Shown here: one piece after another, positions 42,635 to 50,173 of the stretch
Layout of the letters: every line of letters begins with the position of its first letter
Numbering within the stretch: the first letter of the stretch is position 1
Assembly (NCBI RefSeq): GCF_030813515.1
Contig: NZ_JAUSUK010000001.1
Coordinates: forward strand, 806,001-870,000
Direction: 5' to 3'
Length of the DNA: 64,000 nucleotides
Source of the DNA: Rhodopseudomonas julia
GTDB lineage: Bacteria > Pseudomonadota > Alphaproteobacteria > Rhizobiales > Afifellaceae
The notes under the pieces: generated by a model
The model's database searches: none
Told to the model about the DNA's origin: nothing
What the model saw: only the letters and a program-made list of their open reading frames with translations
Program-made: the position numbers and the translations under genes

Positions 42635-44128
42635 TCAGTCCTGCCGTGTCAGCGTCCGGCGCACGGCATCGCGCCATCCGGCGAGCTTTTCGTTGCGCAT
42701 CTCCTCGGAAATCTGCGGCGTGAAGCGGCGTTCGGGGCGCCAGGCCTTGGCGAACTCCTCCTCATGCGGCCACACGCCGGCCTGGCGGCCGGCAAGCCAC
42801 GCCGCCCCAAGGGCAGTCGTTTCCAGAACCACCGGCCGATCGACCGGCGCATCGAGGAGATCGGCGAGACGCTGCATCGTCCAGTCGCTCGCCACCATGC
42901 CGCCGTCGACGCGCAGCACCGGATCGTCGGCGCCCTGCCAGTCACGCTGCATGGCGGAGATGAGGTCGGCCGTCTGGAAGCAGACCGATTCAAGTGCCGC
43001 CCGGGCCAGTTCGGCCGGGCCCGTCGCCCGCGTCAGGCCGAAGAGGGCGCCCCGCGCATCGGAATCCCACCAGGGCGCGCCGAGCCCGGTGAAGGCCGGC
43101 ACGAGATAGACGTCCTGGCCGTCATCGGCGCGGCCGGCGAGTTCGCCCGATTCTTCGGCGCGGTCGATCATTTTGAGCCCGTCGCGCAACCATTGCACGG
43201 CCGCACCGGCGACGAAGATCGAGCCCTCGATGGCGTAGGTGGTGCGCCCGTCGAGGCGATAGGCGATCGTGGTCAGAAGCTTGTTCTTGGAGCGGACGAA
43301 ATCCTCACCCGTATTGAGGACGGCAAAGCAGCCCGTCCCGTAGGTCGACTTCACCATGCCGGGCGTGAAACAGGCCTGGCCGAGGGTGGCGGCGTGCTGG
43401 TCGCCGGCAACGCCGCGGATCGGGATCGCCGTGCCGAAGATCGCAGGATCCGTCTCGCCGAATTCCGCCGCGCTGTCCTTCACCTCCGGCAGCATGGAGC
43501 GCGGCACGCCGAGCATGGCGAGAAGCTCGTCGTCCCATTCGTTGCGGCGAATGTCGAACATCAGCGTCCGTGCCGCATTGGTCGCGTCGGTCGCGTGCAC
43601 GCGGCCCCCGGTCAGTTTCCAGATGAGCCAGGTGTCGACCGTGCCGAAGAGAAGGTCGCCCGCTTCTGCGCGCGCTCTCGCGCCTTCGACATTGTCGAGA
43701 ATCCAGTTCACCTTGGTGCCGGAGAAATAGCTGTCGATCAGAAGACCGGTCTTCTCGGCGACAGGCTCTGCATGACCGTCCTTGATGAGCCGCTCGCAAA
43801 GCCGTGCCGTCCGGCGATCCTGCCAGACGATGGCGTTGTGGACCGGCTTGCCTGTCTTGCGATCCCAAACGAGCGTCGTCTCGCGCTGATTGGTGATGCC
43901 GATGCCGGCGAGATCCGGTGCGGAAAGCCGGGCTTCGGCCAAGGCGCGGCGCACGGTCTCCACCGTGGTGCGCCACAGATCTTCCGGATTGTGCTCCACC
44001 CAGCCGGAGCGCGGGAAATGCTGCTGGAATTCCAGCTGCCCGACGCCCATGACGTGGGCGCGGTCGTCAAAGACGATCGCTCGTGTCGATGTCGTGCCCT
44101 GATCGATGGCGAGGACGTAACCGCCCAT
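42635..44128 (-). CDS. glpK: Glycerol kinase
   Basis: A 497-residue FGGY-family kinase. The start [18 protein letters not shown], the glycerol kinase signatures [20 protein letters not shown] and [15 protein letters not shown], and [20 protein letters not shown] are diagnostic. It phosphorylates glycerol to glycerol-3-phosphate in the cytoplasm. AAGGAAGGG precedes the ATG. No glpF or glpD lies adjacent; the GlpD-like flavoprotein at 15512 is 25 kb away. Confidence 0.96.
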
Positions 44129-44326: not shown

Positions 44327-44536
44327 TCAGTGGCGCGCGGCCATTTTCTTGGTGCCGCACAGGCGCTCGAACGCGTCGGCCGGGGCGTGCCCGGTCGCTT
44401 CCGCTTCGGCTGCGAGATCGCAGGCGGTGGCAAAGGTCGACATCATCTGAGCGAACGAGCGGCCCTGACGTGCCAGCGCGTCGTGCCAGTGCGCTCCAGC
44501 GAGATGGGGTTGGGGGGTTGAGGGGGATGTGCGCAT
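44327..44536 (-). CDS. Small protein of 69 residues, unknown function
   Basis: A 69-codon reading frame with an excellent ribosome binding site (AGGAGT six bases before the ATG at 44536). The middle (RQGRSFAQMMSTFATACDLA) looks like an amphipathic helix and the end carries one further Cys (RLCGTKKM). No family is recognised. It lies 198 bases upstream of glpK on the same strand. Confidence 0.5.
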   Translation of the reverse strand: MRTSPSTPQPHLAGAHWHDALARQGRSFAQMMSTFATACDLAAEAEATGHAPADAFERLCGTKKMAARH

Positions 44537-44728
44537 GGGATCACTCCTGCTTTGACCCTTCTATTCTTGGCGCTGACCTACGCCCGGATGCCGCACCGCA
44601 CAACGCACCTTACGCGATAGCAGCCATCGCGAATTCGGGAGGCTCCGGCTGGAGATAGCGGAAACTCTGTTAATCCCTTTGAAGTCCGCCGGAGCCAGTG
44701 TTGCAGGGGCCGGCCAGGAAGGCGCGGA

Positions 44729-45358
44729 GTGGAACCCGCCCTCCTCTCCACCCGTTCGGCGGTCATGGAATCCAATCCCCGCAACACGACCGAAGTCGTC
44801 GATCGGCTCGCTGAAACGGCACGCCGGCACGAGCGCGTCTCGATCGGGCAGATGATGGACACGTTCGGCCACCGCAGTTACGGCCCCTTCCTGTTGGTCC
44901 CCGCCCTGATCGAGCTCTCACCGATCGGCGGAATACCGGGCGTTCCCACTTTCCTCGCCGCCATCATCGCGCTCTTCGCCGGCCAGATGCTTTTTGGTCG
45001 CGATCATTTCTGGATCCCCGACTTCCTGTCGCGCCAAAGCGTCTCCGCCAGGAAACTGGGCGAGGCCACGCAGTCCATGCGCGCCTTCTCACGCCGCCTC
45101 GATCGCTGGTTCCACGGTCGGCTCACCCGCTACGCCAAAGGCCCCTTCGTGCGGGTGGCGGCCTTCATCTCCATCCTGATGACGCTGACGGTCCCGCCCC
45201 TGGAACTCATCCCGTTCGCAAGCAGCGCACCGATGGGCGCCATCGCGCTCTTCGGGCTCGCACTCCTTGTCTGTGACGGCGCCTTGATGATCGCCGCCAC
45301 AGGCCTTGCCGGCGTCGCGTTGGCAGTAACGGCAAGCGTCTTCGCGCCGGCGCTGTAA
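44729..45358 (+). CDS. ExoD-family membrane protein
   Basis: A 209-residue protein with about four helices in the pattern of ExoD (exopolysaccharide synthesis) family: VSIGQMMDTFGHRSYGPFLL, LSPIGGIPGVPTFLAAIIAL and PLELIPFASSAPMGAIALFG. In Sinorhizobium meliloti, exoD mutants have altered exopolysaccharide and alkaline sensitivity; the biochemical role is unknown. The GTG at 44729 has AGGAAGG six bases upstream; an ATG at 44765 is the alternative. It is the gene upstream of the RiPP-like locus. Confidence 0.85.
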   Translation: MEPALLSTRSAVMESNPRNTTEVVDRLAETARRHERVSIGQMMDTFGHRSYGPFLLVPALIELSPIGGIPGVPTFLAAIIALFAGQMLFGRDHFWIPDFLSRQSVSARKLGEATQSMRAFSRRLDRWFHGRLTRYAKGPFVRVAAFISILMTLTVPPLELIPFASSAPMGAIALFGLALLVCDGALMIAATGLAGVALAVTASVFAPAL

Positions 45359-45577
45359 AGGGCACCTCCACGCATGGGCGGCTGCCGACGACCTGTTCGT
45401 CTTATCTCGCTGTCCAAATAGCAGCCACACATCCACGCGACTGAAACCGGCACAGATCAGCATCTCCGCACCTATACTCATTTTGCATAAAAATGTAACT
45501 ATAGAATTATTGTACGACCATCTTCAATAAGAGCGAAGTATTACTCTTTTTCAATATTTGATCATAAGCATTTCTAC

Positions 45578-45607
45578 TTGACTCTCGAATTCTTCTAGTC
45601 CGTTATT
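45578..45607 (+). promoter_or_regulatory. Candidate sigma70-type promoter of the RiPP-like precursor gene
   Basis: TTGACT at 45578-45583 matches five of six bases of the -35 consensus, and GTTATT at 45602-45607 (18-base spacer) is a partial -10; CGTTAT gives a 17-base spacer. Transcription would start near 45613-45616, about 30 bases before the precursor ATG. Confidence 0.5.
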
Positions 45608-45631
45608 CTCGTGTTGCGTCACGCACACGAG
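45608..45631 (+). promoter_or_regulatory. Leader hairpin touching the precursor ribosome binding site
   Basis: CTCGTGT (45608-45614) pairs with ACACGAG (45625-45631), and after one bulged T (45615) GCG (45616-45618) pairs with CGC (45622-45624) around loop TCA. The 3' end of the stem merges into the strong ribosome binding site GAGGAGGAAG (45630-45638), so the structure could tune translation, or as DNA it could be an operator. Confidence 0.5.
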
Positions 45632-45643
45632 GAGGAAGTCGTT

Positions 45644-45829
45644 ATGGCAACTGAAGCCGGACATCTGCATCAGCCCGACTATTTGCGTGGCCTCGCCAAG
45701 CAGTTGCGCGAGGAAGCGGACCGGGCGGAGGCCCGCGCCAAGAACCTGGAAACCGGAAAGGAAGCCGTCGGATGCGACCCCGGCTGCTGGAACGTCCTTT
45801 CCACCTGCATTCAGGTGCAACCGCTTTGA
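45644..45829 (+). CDS. Candidate RiPP precursor peptide, 61 residues, three core cysteines
   Basis: A 61-residue peptide with a very strong ribosome binding site (GAGGAGGAAG, then TCGTT and ATG). Residues 13-36 form a charged amphipathic helix (LRGLAKQLREEADRAEARAK) typical of a leader, and the C-terminal segment from Gly43 is compositionally different: GCDPGCWNVLSTCIQVQPL, with Cys44, Cys48 and Cys55 (C-x3-C-x6-C). A radical SAM/SPASM enzyme gene follows after a hairpin. This is the standard layout of sactipeptide/ranthipeptide-type precursors. No cleavage motif such as double glycine is evident. I do not recognise the family, and the modification is inferred, not seen. Confidence 0.8.
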   Translation: MATEAGHLHQPDYLRGLAKQLREEADRAEARAKNLETGKEAVGCDPGCWNVLSTCIQVQPL

Positions 45830-45838
45830 CATGAAGCG

Positions 45839-45864
45839 TCCGGCGTCCGTTCGCGGACGCCGGA
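45839..45864 (+). terminator. Strong hairpin between precursor and radical SAM gene (attenuator)
   Basis: TCCGGCGTCCG (45839-45849), loop TTCG, CGGACGCCGGA (45854-45864): a perfect 11-bp stem closed by a tetraloop, followed by TCTTTCT. It starts 10 bases after the precursor stop. The weak T-tract suggests partial termination, which would make more precursor than maturase mRNA and protect the precursor transcript's 3' end. Confidence 0.75.
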
Positions 45865-45935
45865 TCTTTCTCCGCCTCACGCCGCCTTTCGTGCGGTGAA
45901 GGCGGGCCCAATTCGCACGCCGGGAGGAGGCCACA

Positions 45936-47342
45936 ATGGGCGTTGAAGCGAAGCACTCCGTTCCTGTCCTGAAGGACAATGTGCGGCTGAAGCCGATGCA
46001 GGGTTATGCGCTGGCGCATGGCTACCATCCTTCGCTTATTCGGATGATCCATCCCTCCCATGCGTTTTTTCTGTCGCTCTGCCACGGCCGCATGACCGCC
46101 GCCGAAATCGCCTTTCTCTACGGCGAAACCTACGGGCTTTCGTCGACGAAAGCCCGATCGCAGGTGATCCGGCTGATCGAGCAAAACCGGATGTTTCTGA
46201 CGGAGGATGATCTGTCCATCGGAGAGCCGGGGCCCGATCCGCAGGTCAAACCGCGTTTCGAACCGAAGAGCTTTCTTTATCCCGGAGACGACGCGATCAT
46301 CGCGAGCGCCGCCCATGGGCAATGGCCGGTGCCCGCCGGCATCAACATCACGCTCACCTTCAAGTGCAATTTCGACTGCACCTATTGCTACCAGGACCTC
46401 CGGCAAAAGGGAGACCCGCGCTGGGACCTGACGAAGTGCCTGAAGGTGGTCGACGAGGCCGCCGATTGGGGTGTCGTTTTTCTCGGCCTCACGGGCGGCG
46501 AACCCACTCTTTTCAAGGGCTGGCTGGAGGTCATCGAACACGGCCTCCGCCTCGGCATGATCCCGACAATCACCAGCAATGGCACGGTGATCGGCTCTGA
46601 CCCCAGGATCGCGCAACGTCTCGCCAAAGCGGGAATGGAGGAGATCACCATTTCCTTCGATGCGCCGACGGCAGAGCTTCACGACGCGGTGACGCGTTCG
46701 CGCGGTCAATTCCAGCGCGTGCTCAACGCCATCCACTACCTCACCGATGCCGGCATCAAGGTCATCGTGAAGAGCGTGCTCACACCCAAGACACAAGACG
46801 GCGTCGAGACGATGATCGACCTTCTCGTCACGCTCGGGGTCGCGGAAATCGGCATCTCCTACATGGAGACCGGCGCCATCCATTCCGGCGCCAATTCAGA
46901 GACAAACGTCACGGACGAAGAGCTTGCGCGGGTCCGCCAGAAGGTGGCGAAGAAGCGCGACGATTATGCCGCTCTATGCCGCGTTCATCCCCCCAAAGAC
47001 ACCAGCCGCAAATGGAGTGAAGACGACTGGTATCCCTGTGGCGGTATCAATATGGGCATGTCGATCTTTCCGACCGGCGATGTCTCCGTCTGCGACAAGA
47101 TGCATGGCGTGAAAGACTTCACCTACGGCAACGTCTTCGAGGCCGGACTGAAAGCCATCTGGAATGGGGACGCATTCGCGGCGCTGCGTGAGCGCACAGT
47201 GGCGCCTGCGCTGATCGATCCGGAATGCGCACACTGCTCCAAGCTCTATGCCTGCCGCACCTCTTGTTTCGTGGATTCGTTCAACGCCACCGGCAGCTAC
47301 TACGCCAAGGACCCACATTGCGGCGGGCCTTTTTTCACCTGA
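45936..47342 (+). CDS. Radical SAM/SPASM peptide maturase
   Basis: A 468-residue enzyme. Residues about 35-95 (SHAFFLSLCHGRMTAAEIAF and the helices after it) resemble a PqqD-type winged helix (RRE) that binds leader peptides. The radical SAM core has CNFDCTYC (Cys144, Cys148, Cys151) for the SAM-binding cluster and TGGEPTL at 186-192. The C-terminus has the full seven-cysteine SPASM pattern: Cys368, then Gly381-x4-Cys386, then Cys431-x2-Cys434-x5-Cys440-x3-Cys444, then Cys462, implying two auxiliary 4Fe-4S clusters. GGGAGGAGG precedes the ATG. Such enzymes make thioether or C-C crosslinks in peptides; the substrate is probably the 61-residue peptide upstream. Confidence 0.93.
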   Translation: MGVEAKHSVPVLKDNVRLKPMQGYALAHGYHPSLIRMIHPSHAFFLSLCHGRMTAAEIAFLYGETYGLSSTKARSQVIRLIEQNRMFLTEDDLSIGEPGPDPQVKPRFEPKSFLYPGDDAIIASAAHGQWPVPAGINITLTFKCNFDCTYCYQDLRQKGDPRWDLTKCLKVVDEAADWGVVFLGLTGGEPTLFKGWLEVIEHGLRLGMIPTITSNGTVIGSDPRIAQRLAKAGMEEITISFDAPTAELHDAVTRSRGQFQRVLNAIHYLTDAGIKVIVKSVLTPKTQDGVETMIDLLVTLGVAEIGISYMETGAIHSGANSETNVTDEELARVRQKVAKKRDDYAALCRVHPPKDTSRKWSEDDWYPCGGINMGMSIFPTGDVSVCDKMHGVKDFTYGNVFEAGLKAIWNGDAFAALRERTVAPALIDPECAHCSKLYACRTSCFVDSFNATGSYYAKDPHCGGPFFT

Positions 47343-47385
47343 GCAAGCTCCAGGACCACCGCCCCTCCCCCGAAAGGCCAAACCC

Positions 47386-48054
47386 ATGTCCGTGAAATTC
47401 GACATCAACTACCATGCCGAACTGACCGCAGAGGCCAATGACGGCGTCCTCGATGAAGAGCAACTCGGCTATGTGGTTCTCGCCAATATGGCGCAAGATC
47501 TGCTGCAGACGAAAAGCTATGTGCACTTCGACAATTGCGATTTCCCCGGCGGCATCCAGCATATCGCCGAGGAATGGAACCTCATCGACACGATCGGCGA
47601 CAAGTACGGAGATCCCGCGCTTGCCGCTTTTGGCGCACTCCTTCACACGACGCAGGACTTCTACGCGCATTCGAACTGGATCGAATTGCATGTGAACGAC
47701 GCGCCGATTCCGGTCTGGGATCAAACGCTGCAGACCCTGCCCGCAGATATCGTCAGCGGCACCTGGGCGCTCGGCTCGCCGAAACTGTGCGGACCCAACG
47801 CACCGAGCCACAGCCAGCTCAACAAGGACAGCCCGAGCTCGACGGAGGGGAGCAAAATCGTCGATAGCGGCCCGAACGAGGGCAAGAGCTTGTTCGAGCT
47901 TGCCTATGCGACCGCGCTGTCGGCCACCAAGGTGCAGTACGCCCGCTTCAAGACGGTCAAACTGGCAGCGGGCGACCTGCGCACGGCGCGCACCGAAGGC
48001 GAGACATTGATGTATATGATAAAGGCGAACGCCGAATTGCGCCGCGTCTTCTGA
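47386..48054 (+). CDS. Het-C-like (zinc-dependent phospholipase C-like) protein linked to the RiPP locus
   Basis: A 222-residue protein. YVHFDNCDF (45-53) and ALLHTTQDFYAHSNWIEL (84-101) match the HFDN and H-x3-D-x3-H motifs of Het-C-type proteins, related to zinc-dependent phospholipase C/P1 nuclease folds; His47, His87, Asp91 and His95 are probable metal ligands. No signal peptide or membrane segment is seen. GAAAGG precedes the ATG, which is 43 bases after the maturase stop on the same strand. It is not a recognised RiPP enzyme, so its role (hydrolase on the peptide, effector or immunity) is open. Confidence 0.72.
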   Translation: MSVKFDINYHAELTAEANDGVLDEEQLGYVVLANMAQDLLQTKSYVHFDNCDFPGGIQHIAEEWNLIDTIGDKYGDPALAAFGALLHTTQDFYAHSNWIELHVNDAPIPVWDQTLQTLPADIVSGTWALGSPKLCGPNAPSHSQLNKDSPSSTEGSKIVDSGPNEGKSLFELAYATALSATKVQYARFKTVKLAAGDLRTARTEGETLMYMIKANAELRRVF

Positions 48055-48086
48055 CGTTCGCCAAACTCACCTGCTCCCCAATTCCC

Positions 48087-50045
<1,959 letters not shown>

Positions 50046-50173
50046 CAGCGTTTCCTCGGCTCGTGTTCTGTAAAGGCGGTCTTGCCTCACGAAGGAAGGC
50101 GTGCAGAAAGCCCCAAACGCCTTGCCTTCGGTCGGCAAAGCCCCTATCGCGATGACAACGGAGATAGGTTCCC

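What the first reader, a model, noticed from the sequence alone, without database searches (positions are those of the whole stretch)
45578..48054. Compact RiPP-like locus: 61-residue Cys-core peptide, SPASM radical SAM enzyme and a Het-C-like protein
Seen: a 61-residue peptide with strong ribosome binding site, helical leader and C-x3-C-x6-C core; a downstream radical SAM enzyme with CNFDCTYC, a PqqD-like N-terminus and a full seven-Cys SPASM motif; then a Het-C-like protein 43 bases later. Known: this arrangement makes thioether-crosslinked peptides (sactipeptides, ranthipeptides). Inferred: the peptide is the substrate. I know of no described RiPP family that pairs such a maturase with a Het-C/zinc phospholipase-like partner, and no transporter or protease is adjacent.
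Basis: partly seen in the sequence, partly recalled or inferred. Interest (0 to 1): 0.88.

Follow-up and report, generated by a model that had tools for sequence, protein, structure and literature searches.

The report
Rhizobial-type radical-SAM peptide cassette plus hydrolase
A short cysteine-containing peptide and the iron-sulfur enzyme that probably modifies it form a conserved pair in this genus and on some rhizobial plasmids, and in this genus a third gene, a predicted metal-dependent hydrolase that lacks its relatives' export signal, stands beside them.

Summary
In detail: a 61-aa peptide gene (45644-45829), a radical SAM/SPASM enzyme (45936-47342) and a Het-C/VWA7-type hydrolase gene (47386-48054), in an Afifella relative. 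Orthologues of the enzyme (58-94% identical) turned up at 13 loci: 4 Afifella, 6 rhizobial plasmids, 3 unnamed order-mates. All 13 have a homologous peptide gene just upstream; intact class-A copies are under purifying selection. Nine cores keep CxxGCWNxLSTCI; three have a different two-Cys core that still holds GCWN; one is altered. The enzyme's N-terminus is predicted to fold like a leader-binding (RRE) domain; its closest solved structures are SuiB and SkfB. That the peptide is the substrate is well supported; the cross-link chemistry is unknown. The Het-C-like gene is not part of the conserved unit: it was seen only in Afifella (4 of 13 loci), and a fifth genome of the genus keeps it while the peptide is a remnant and the enzyme is gone. 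It carries the published Het-C metal-site motif but lacks the export signal of its relatives. Verdict: an apparently undescribed two-gene RiPP family with a genus-specific hydrolase added.

The parts
45630..45635 (+). ribosome-binding site (AGGAGG) of the peptide gene
   Evidence: sequence; an AGGAG-type site precedes the peptide ATG at all 10 loci printed
45644..45829 (+). precursor peptide, 61 aa: about 43-residue leader and, if it starts at Cys44, an 18-residue core CDPGCWNVLSTCIQVQPL
   Evidence: homologue upstream of the enzyme at 13 of 13 loci
45936..47342 (+). radical SAM/SPASM maturase, 468 aa, predicted N-terminal RRE-like domain (residues 17-83)
47386..48054 (+). Het-C/VWA7_N-type predicted metallohydrolase, 222 aa, no signal peptide

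Best explanation
A two-gene RiPP cassette. The maturase's N-terminal RRE (predicted) holds the leader of the 61-aa peptide, and its radical SAM and SPASM iron-sulfur clusters install one or more cross-links in the C-terminal core. The chemistry is centred on Gly-Cys-Trp-Asn and, in the common class, two further Cys. Shown here: the pairing, purifying selection, cluster ligands, and that core type and enzyme type change together. Inferred: leader binding, cross-linking, and removal of the leader by a peptidase encoded elsewhere. The nearly fixed core suggests one precise product (a signal, cofactor or metal ligand) rather than a diversifying antibiotic (inference). In Afifella a Het-C-type metallohydrolase without export signal has joined the operon. 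It most likely acts in the same cell compartment as the maturation, but it is an optional accessory that the cassette does not have elsewhere.
For: Peptide homologue upstream of the enzyme at 13 of 13 orthologous loci (11 of 11), same strand, gaps of 61-244 bases at the 11 loci measured. Nine of 13 cores keep CxxGCWNxLSTCI, although outside the closest Afifella the enzymes of these nine are 59-66% identical to the window's. dN/dS of the peptide is 0.03-0.20 for five pairs of intact class-A copies (some dS values saturated); two closer pairs have dN 0. Class-B cores go with class-B enzymes, which differ at 6 of the 193 residues shared by the other nine, two of them (372, 373) just after SPASM Cys368. 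Predicted RRE topology; Foldseek ranks SuiB first, then SkfB, TigE and PqqE, the SuiB alignments spanning 459-471 columns. Sequence profile: 13 PDB matches, led by PqqE, with SkfB and SuiB among them. In the family, 4 of 11 genomes have all three genes, 1 has the hydrolase plus a peptide remnant, 6 have none at the thresholds used.
Against: No experiment. No protease or exporter is conserved nearby. No RRE family was matched by sequence; the RRE rests on a model of mean pLDDT 73 (blocks of 68-87 between residues 11 and 90) from 10 sequences. Three of 13 cores lack two of the three Cys positions, and one (R. etli IE4803) has lost GCWN. Constraint is weaker outside class A: dN/dS 0.31 for the class-B pair CB3171-G1137 and 0.60 for G740-R. 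etli. The enzyme gene of Rhizobium CB3090 is split between two frames. The 6 class-B changes may only reflect that these enzymes form their own clade. The unit is rare: 3 of 384 genomes in the family of G740, 5 of 397 in the order sample at orthologue level, 1 of 385 in the class sample, the window's own.
Confidence: 0.75

Rival explanations
1. The product is a classical thioether RiPP: each of the three Cys is joined to a residue of the core (sactipeptide or ranthipeptide).
For: Three conserved Cys in 9 of 13 cores; NCBIfam's best score is StsB, a sactipeptide maturase, 111.7 bits; SkfB is the second-ranked solved enzyme.
Against: StsB's curated cut-off is 625 bits, so it is not a member. The class-B core keeps only one of the three Cys positions. 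The nearest structure is SuiB, treated with the C-C cyclases in PMC8326336 (passage). Known sactipeptides have leaders of 8-29 and cores of 26-44 residues (same source), against about 43 and 18 here.
Confidence: 0.4
2. The cross-link is made on Trp49 or Asn50 (C-C or Cys-Trp type) and the outer Cys serve metal binding or disulfide formation.
For: GCWN is the only core element shared by class A and class B (12 of 13 copies); SuiB (a Lys-Trp cross-linker, recalled) is the top fold match.
Against: No direct evidence; fold similarity does not give the bond type.
Confidence: 0.3
3. The Het-C-like hydrolase is the functional end of the Afifella operon: an intracellular effector whose activity or target is set by the modified peptide (toxin/inhibitor or enzyme/guide).
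For: Both appear within this genus and neither was found in the six other family genomes; gaps of 12-43 bases in 4 of 4 intact Afifella cassettes; Het-C motif kept; Het-C is described as a toxin domain (passages of PMC3482391); without a signal peptide it stays in the same compartment.
Against: G388 keeps the hydrolase intact without peptide or enzyme, hard to reconcile with the peptide being an essential antitoxin; dN/dS on the two pairs with G388 is still 0.22-0.28.
Confidence: 0.2
4. The Het-C-like gene is a hitch-hiker: acquired with or next to the cassette and unrelated in function.
For: Absent beside the enzyme at 9 of 13 loci; survives cassette loss in G388.
Against: Kept in order, close and under constraint in all 4 intact Afifella cassettes.
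Confidence: 0.35

Closest known systems
SuiB (streptide-type maturase)
   Same: RRE + radical SAM + SPASM; top Foldseek match, aligned over 459-471 columns
   Different: 16-18% identity in those alignments; different core; leader binding mode here unknown
StsB, SkfB and other sactisynthases
   Same: architecture; Cys-bearing cores; StsB is the best NCBIfam score
   Different: 111.7 bits against a cut-off of 625; longer leader and shorter core than in known sactipeptides; no conserved transporter
PqqE/PqqD/PqqA
   Same: PqqE is the best PDB sequence match (E 6e-19)
   Different: PqqD is a separate protein there; TIGR02109 109 bits against 381
Tox-HET-C / VWA7_N hydrolases (PF25107)
   Same: VWA7_N above cut-off; motif H, HxD, HxxxDxxxH, NxxE, SG
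   Different: export signal missing; small stand-alone protein beside a RiPP cassette

Membership tests
RiPP made by a radical SAM/SPASM maturase | short precursor gene conserved beside the maturase | tested here: met
   13 of 13 loci
RiPP made by a radical SAM/SPASM maturase | CxxxCxxC and seven-Cys SPASM | tested here: met
   10 Cys invariant in 12 sequences
RiPP made by a radical SAM/SPASM maturase | RRE (PqqD-like winged helix) on the maturase | tested here: inconclusive
   no Pfam match, but predicted beta3-alpha3 topology and SuiB/SkfB fold matches
RiPP made by a radical SAM/SPASM maturase | enzymatic modification of the peptide | not testable with these tools
   needs co-expression and mass spectrometry
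Sactipeptide/ranthipeptide | Cys thioether to a backbone or side-chain carbon | not testable with these tools
   needs mass spectrometry or NMR
Sactipeptide/ranthipeptide | maturase reaches a curated model (StsB, PapB and others) | tested here: not met
   none of the 25 best of 89 NCBIfam matches reaches its cut-off; the other 64 were not shown
Sactipeptide/ranthipeptide | leader 8-29 aa, core 26-44 aa (known sactipeptides, PMC8326336) | tested here: inconclusive
   about 43 and 18 aa if the core starts at Cys44, outside both ranges; the cleavage site is not known
Het-C (PF07217) | Pfam cut-off | tested here: not met
   16.5 bits against 21
VWA7_N / Het-C-like hydrolase (PF25107) | Pfam cut-off | tested here: met
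   43.3 bits against 27.5
VWA7_N / Het-C-like hydrolase (PF25107) | metal-site motif H, [DE], HxD, HxxxDxxxH, Nxx[DE], [ST]G (PMC3482391) | tested here: met
   H10, H47xD49, H87xxxD91xxxH95, N97xxE100, S124G125 invariant in 5 of 5 Afifella rows; the lone [DE] was not assigned to a residue
VWA7_N / Het-C-like hydrolase (PF25107) | secretion signal of its relatives | tested here: not met
   4 of 4 distant homologues (starts chosen by me) begin with a hydrophobic segment ending in LAF, peak hydropathy 1.98-2.78; 5 of 5 Afifella rows start after it, peak 1.12-1.52
VWA7_N / Het-C-like hydrolase (PF25107) | S1-P1/phospholipase C fold | tested here: inconclusive
   model mean pLDDT 44, too poor to search with

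The most novel reading that the evidence does not exclude
A Het-C/VWA7-type metallohydrolase, secreted in the relatives examined and toxin-related by family, has lost its export signal and become a dedicated intracellular partner of a RiPP: it either finishes the radical-SAM-modified peptide (for example by cutting off the leader) or is itself steered by it. This would be, as far as I know, the first Het-C-type hydrolase in a RiPP pathway.
Probability: 0.25. Interest if true: 0.75.

Novelty: new variant of a known kind. Interest (0 to 1): 0.52.

Why it matters
It defines a compact RiPP family (leader around GxLHxPxxLxxLAxQLRxEAxRAEARA, core CxxGCWNxLSTCI) for which I found no Pfam or NCBIfam model. 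It is carried by rhizobial plasmids, three of the six records being from nodule isolates, and has two core types that go with different enzymes, a natural experiment on specificity. The near-fixed core suggests a defined signal or cofactor. The Afifella version tests whether a Het-C-type hydrolase can belong to a RiPP pathway, and the genus offers intact, diverged and partly deleted copies for comparison.

Tried and rejected
Rejected: (1) that the peptide ORF is chance: conservation and dN/dS speak for the stated frame. (2) That the Het-C-like protein is the enzyme's substrate: loci lacking it keep the peptide. (3) That the Het-C-like gene belongs to the conserved cassette. (4) That the enzymes of G740 and G1194 are broken: the one stop reported for each is the terminal stop.

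Led nowhere: viral contigs (21 stretches matched a pattern, none a relative of the hydrolase; 17 relatives of the enzyme, best segments 24-34% identical, so no orthologue; 0); phages with the hydrolase (none); PDB sequence search with the hydrolase profile (0); AlphaFold of the hydrolase (pLDDT 44); Rfam over 44400-48200 (0); tRNA search of the window (0). The hydrolase profile in a phylum sample of 398 genomes hit the window's own and three distant ones. In one search, weak peptide matches (E 0.04-1) in nine genomes look like chance; only those of G000, G385, G386, G387 and the G388 remnant are used. Literature: searches listed no paper recognisable from title or abstract start as describing this family or a Het-C-type protein in a RiPP cluster; the lists show 10 of 84, 46, 63 and 129 papers, and only the held open-access library was searched. 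Papers: PMC3482391 and PMC8326336 were seen as passages, all others only as search listings. Sampling limits: whole-genome searches draw part of each group and score few candidates per genome, so counts are lower bounds; the empty answer comes without a positive control in the same call (the same profile finds G000).
Full report
WHAT IS THERE. Peptide gene 45644-45829, radical SAM/SPASM gene 45936-47342 and Het-C-like gene 47386-48054 are on the + strand with gaps of 106 and 43 bases. The flanks are ordinary: ExoD (44729-45358) upstream, an AMP-binding (acyl-CoA synthetase-type) enzyme (48087-50138, minus strand) downstream, an FGGY carbohydrate kinase further upstream (42635-44128, minus). 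No Rfam match over 44400-48200. The window is part of a 3.79-Mb genome whose two hits in the named collection are Afifella marina (enzyme 94% identical) and A. pfennigii (66%).

IS THE PEPTIDE A GENE. It is 100% identical in G385 and A. marina and 80% identical in A. pfennigii, with all three Cys kept. Synonymous change is well above non-synonymous: window-marina dN 0, dS 0.13; dN/dS window-pfennigii 0.12, window-Mesorhizobium 0.10, Mesorhizobium-S. fredii 0.18, G740-G1194 0.03, Mesorhizobium-G740 0.20. It is weaker for the class-B pair CB3171-G1137 (0.31) and for G740 against the altered R. etli copy (0.60) (60-65 codons, so rough, and dS is saturated in some pairs). An AGGAG-type ribosome-binding site lies before the ATG at all 10 loci printed. 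In the window it is the only one of 432 ORFs of 30-110 aa with the motif in its C-terminal half. The window's peptide has no Pfam match at E 1 and no NCBIfam match above cut-off; four homologues have no NCBIfam match at E 0.01.

THE CONSERVED UNIT IS PEPTIDE PLUS ENZYME. tblastn of the enzyme in 72,556 plasmid records gave 264 records; of the 40 listed, six lie at 58-63% identity over 95-99% of the length and the rest at 27% or less: Mesorhizobium loti 582 and M. huakuii 583 (same peptide sequence), Rhizobium etli IE4803, Rhizobium CB3171 and CB3090, Sinorhizobium fredii SMH12 (neighbourhoods). Whole-genome searches added G740 (order sample of 397: six matches, five of them orthologues, four being Afifella) and G1137 and G1194 (family of G740: 3 of 384 with G740). 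With four Afifella loci (window, G385, A. marina, A. pfennigii) this makes 13. A homologous peptide gene precedes the enzyme at all 13. In an all-against-all comparison of ORFs of 50 aa or more at 11 of these loci (M. huakuii and G385 not included; the G740 stretch is only 4 kb) peptide and enzyme, with antisense or alternative-frame shadows of them, recurred in all 11; the Het-C-like gene recurred in the three Afifella loci included; a group holding an annotated ABC-transporter ATPase recurred at 5 of 11, away from the cassette. Five of the six plasmid stretches have an annotated transposase or IS gene (all but R. etli).

CORES AND ENZYME CHANGE TOGETHER. Nine of 13 peptides hold CxxGCWNxLSTCI near the end (Afifella 4, Mesorhizobium 2, S. 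fredii, G740, G1194). Three (CB3171, CB3090, G1137) have a different end with two Cys that keeps PGCWN. R. etli IE4803 keeps the leader but its core is altered and lacks GCWN. The three class-B enzymes (one a partial piece) differ from the nine others compared, R. etli included, at 6 of the 193 positions that those nine share; two of these (372, 373) follow the first SPASM Cys. This may in part be plain clade divergence: in a tree of 11 orthologues and two outgroups the class-B pair groups at 83/100 and Afifella at 100/99. I read GCWN as the heart of the modified region (inference).

THE ENZYME. Radical_SAM and SPASM are above cut-off; all ten cluster Cys are invariant. Of 89 NCBIfam matches the 25 shown all fall below their cut-offs; the best scores are StsB 111.7 (cut-off 625) and PqqE 109.3 (cut-off 381). 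PDB profile search: 13 matches, led by PqqE, with SkfB and SuiB (5v1q, so named) among them; that 5wgg is CteB is recalled. The AlphaFold model (mean pLDDT 73, 10 sequences) shows beta-beta-beta-alpha-alpha-alpha at 17-83; that this is the RRE layout is recalled, one search gives a winged-helix RRE in the N-terminal part of such enzymes. Foldseek places SuiB first, then SkfB, TigE and PqqE. Residues 91-131 and 421-468 are poorly predicted.

THE HET-C-LIKE GENE. It was found in all five genomes of the genus that were searched and in none of the other 392 genomes of the order sample at E 1e-5, the six other family members included; the enzyme cassette is intact in four of the five. The remaining one, G388, keeps the hydrolase as an open frame (67% identical), with what reads as the same AMP-binding gene downstream. 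Upstream of it only a piece of the peptide leader remains (no start codon in place, no core) and the enzyme gene is gone from the locus; G388's best enzyme match elsewhere is a 25%-identical paralogue. The simplest reading is that the ancestor had the whole set and the hydrolase outlived the rest. dN/dS of the hydrolase is 0.10-0.28 over five pairs, the two highest (0.22, 0.28) being those with G388. Zhang et al. 2012 (PMC3482391, passages) give Tox-HET-C the motif H, [DE], HxD, HxxxDxxxH, Nxx[DE], [ST]G and relate it to phospholipase C and S1-P1 nuclease; apart from the lone [DE], which I did not assign, the elements are present and invariant in 5 of 5 rows. Aligned with four distant relatives (G868, G983, G1056, a Scytonema plasmid) the Afifella proteins begin where the others' export signal ends (signal read from the sequence and hydropathy, no dedicated predictor). 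The model was too poor for a fold search.

MECHANISM. Shown: gene pairing, constraint, cluster ligands, co-change, motif, missing signal. Inferred: the RRE holds the leader, the radical enzyme cross-links the core around GCWN, a general peptidase cuts the leader. Whether the bond is a thioether or a carbon-carbon link to Trp or Asn cannot be told. The near-invariant core argues for a precise product rather than an arms-race antibiotic (inference). The Afifella hydrolase acts, if it belongs, inside the cell; its survival in G388 argues against the peptide being its indispensable inhibitor.

NOVELTY. I found no curated family for peptide or enzyme and recognised no paper on it in ten searches of the held library (listed in Tried and rejected), which do not cover subscription journals. 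The architecture and the enzyme class are known; the precursor family, its core variants and the hydrolase neighbour are the new parts.

Noticed in passing
L041 8449-8757 (+) and L043 7482-7790 (+): About 102-aa Gly/Cys-repeat peptides (GGGDC... NESCLNASDGG...) just upstream of paralogous radical SAM/SPASM enzymes in A. pfennigii (G387) and G388; the L041 peptide has no NCBIfam match. Another probable RiPP.
   Followed up: partly
L042 8664-8876 (-): Short Cys-rich peptide (TCNEACFSGCAACCSSG) upstream of a further radical SAM/SPASM paralogue in A. pfennigii (G387); no NCBIfam match.
   Followed up: partly
L051 2999-6206 and L057 5556-8791: Small hypothetical gene next to two adjacent radical SAM genes on rhizobial plasmids, a different cassette type; on L051 about 1.3 kb from the peptide gene studied here.
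   Followed up: no
L048 and L053, 1-7086: Multicopper oxidase, tyrosinase, LodA-like CTQ oxidase and an FAD/NAD(P)-binding protein in a row about 0.6 kb upstream of the peptide gene on both Mesorhizobium plasmids; not annotated at the other four plasmid loci.
   Followed up: partly
L049 7721-7906 and L052 7983-9360: Apparently decaying copies: altered core in R. etli IE4803; enzyme gene split between two frames in Rhizobium CB3090.
   Followed up: no
window 44729-45358; L005 7715-9433; L039 4081-5346: The upstream neighbour differs within Afifella (ExoD in the window; BPD_transp permease in A. pfennigii and G388) while the downstream AMP-binding gene looks constant.
   Followed up: partly
   Followed up: no
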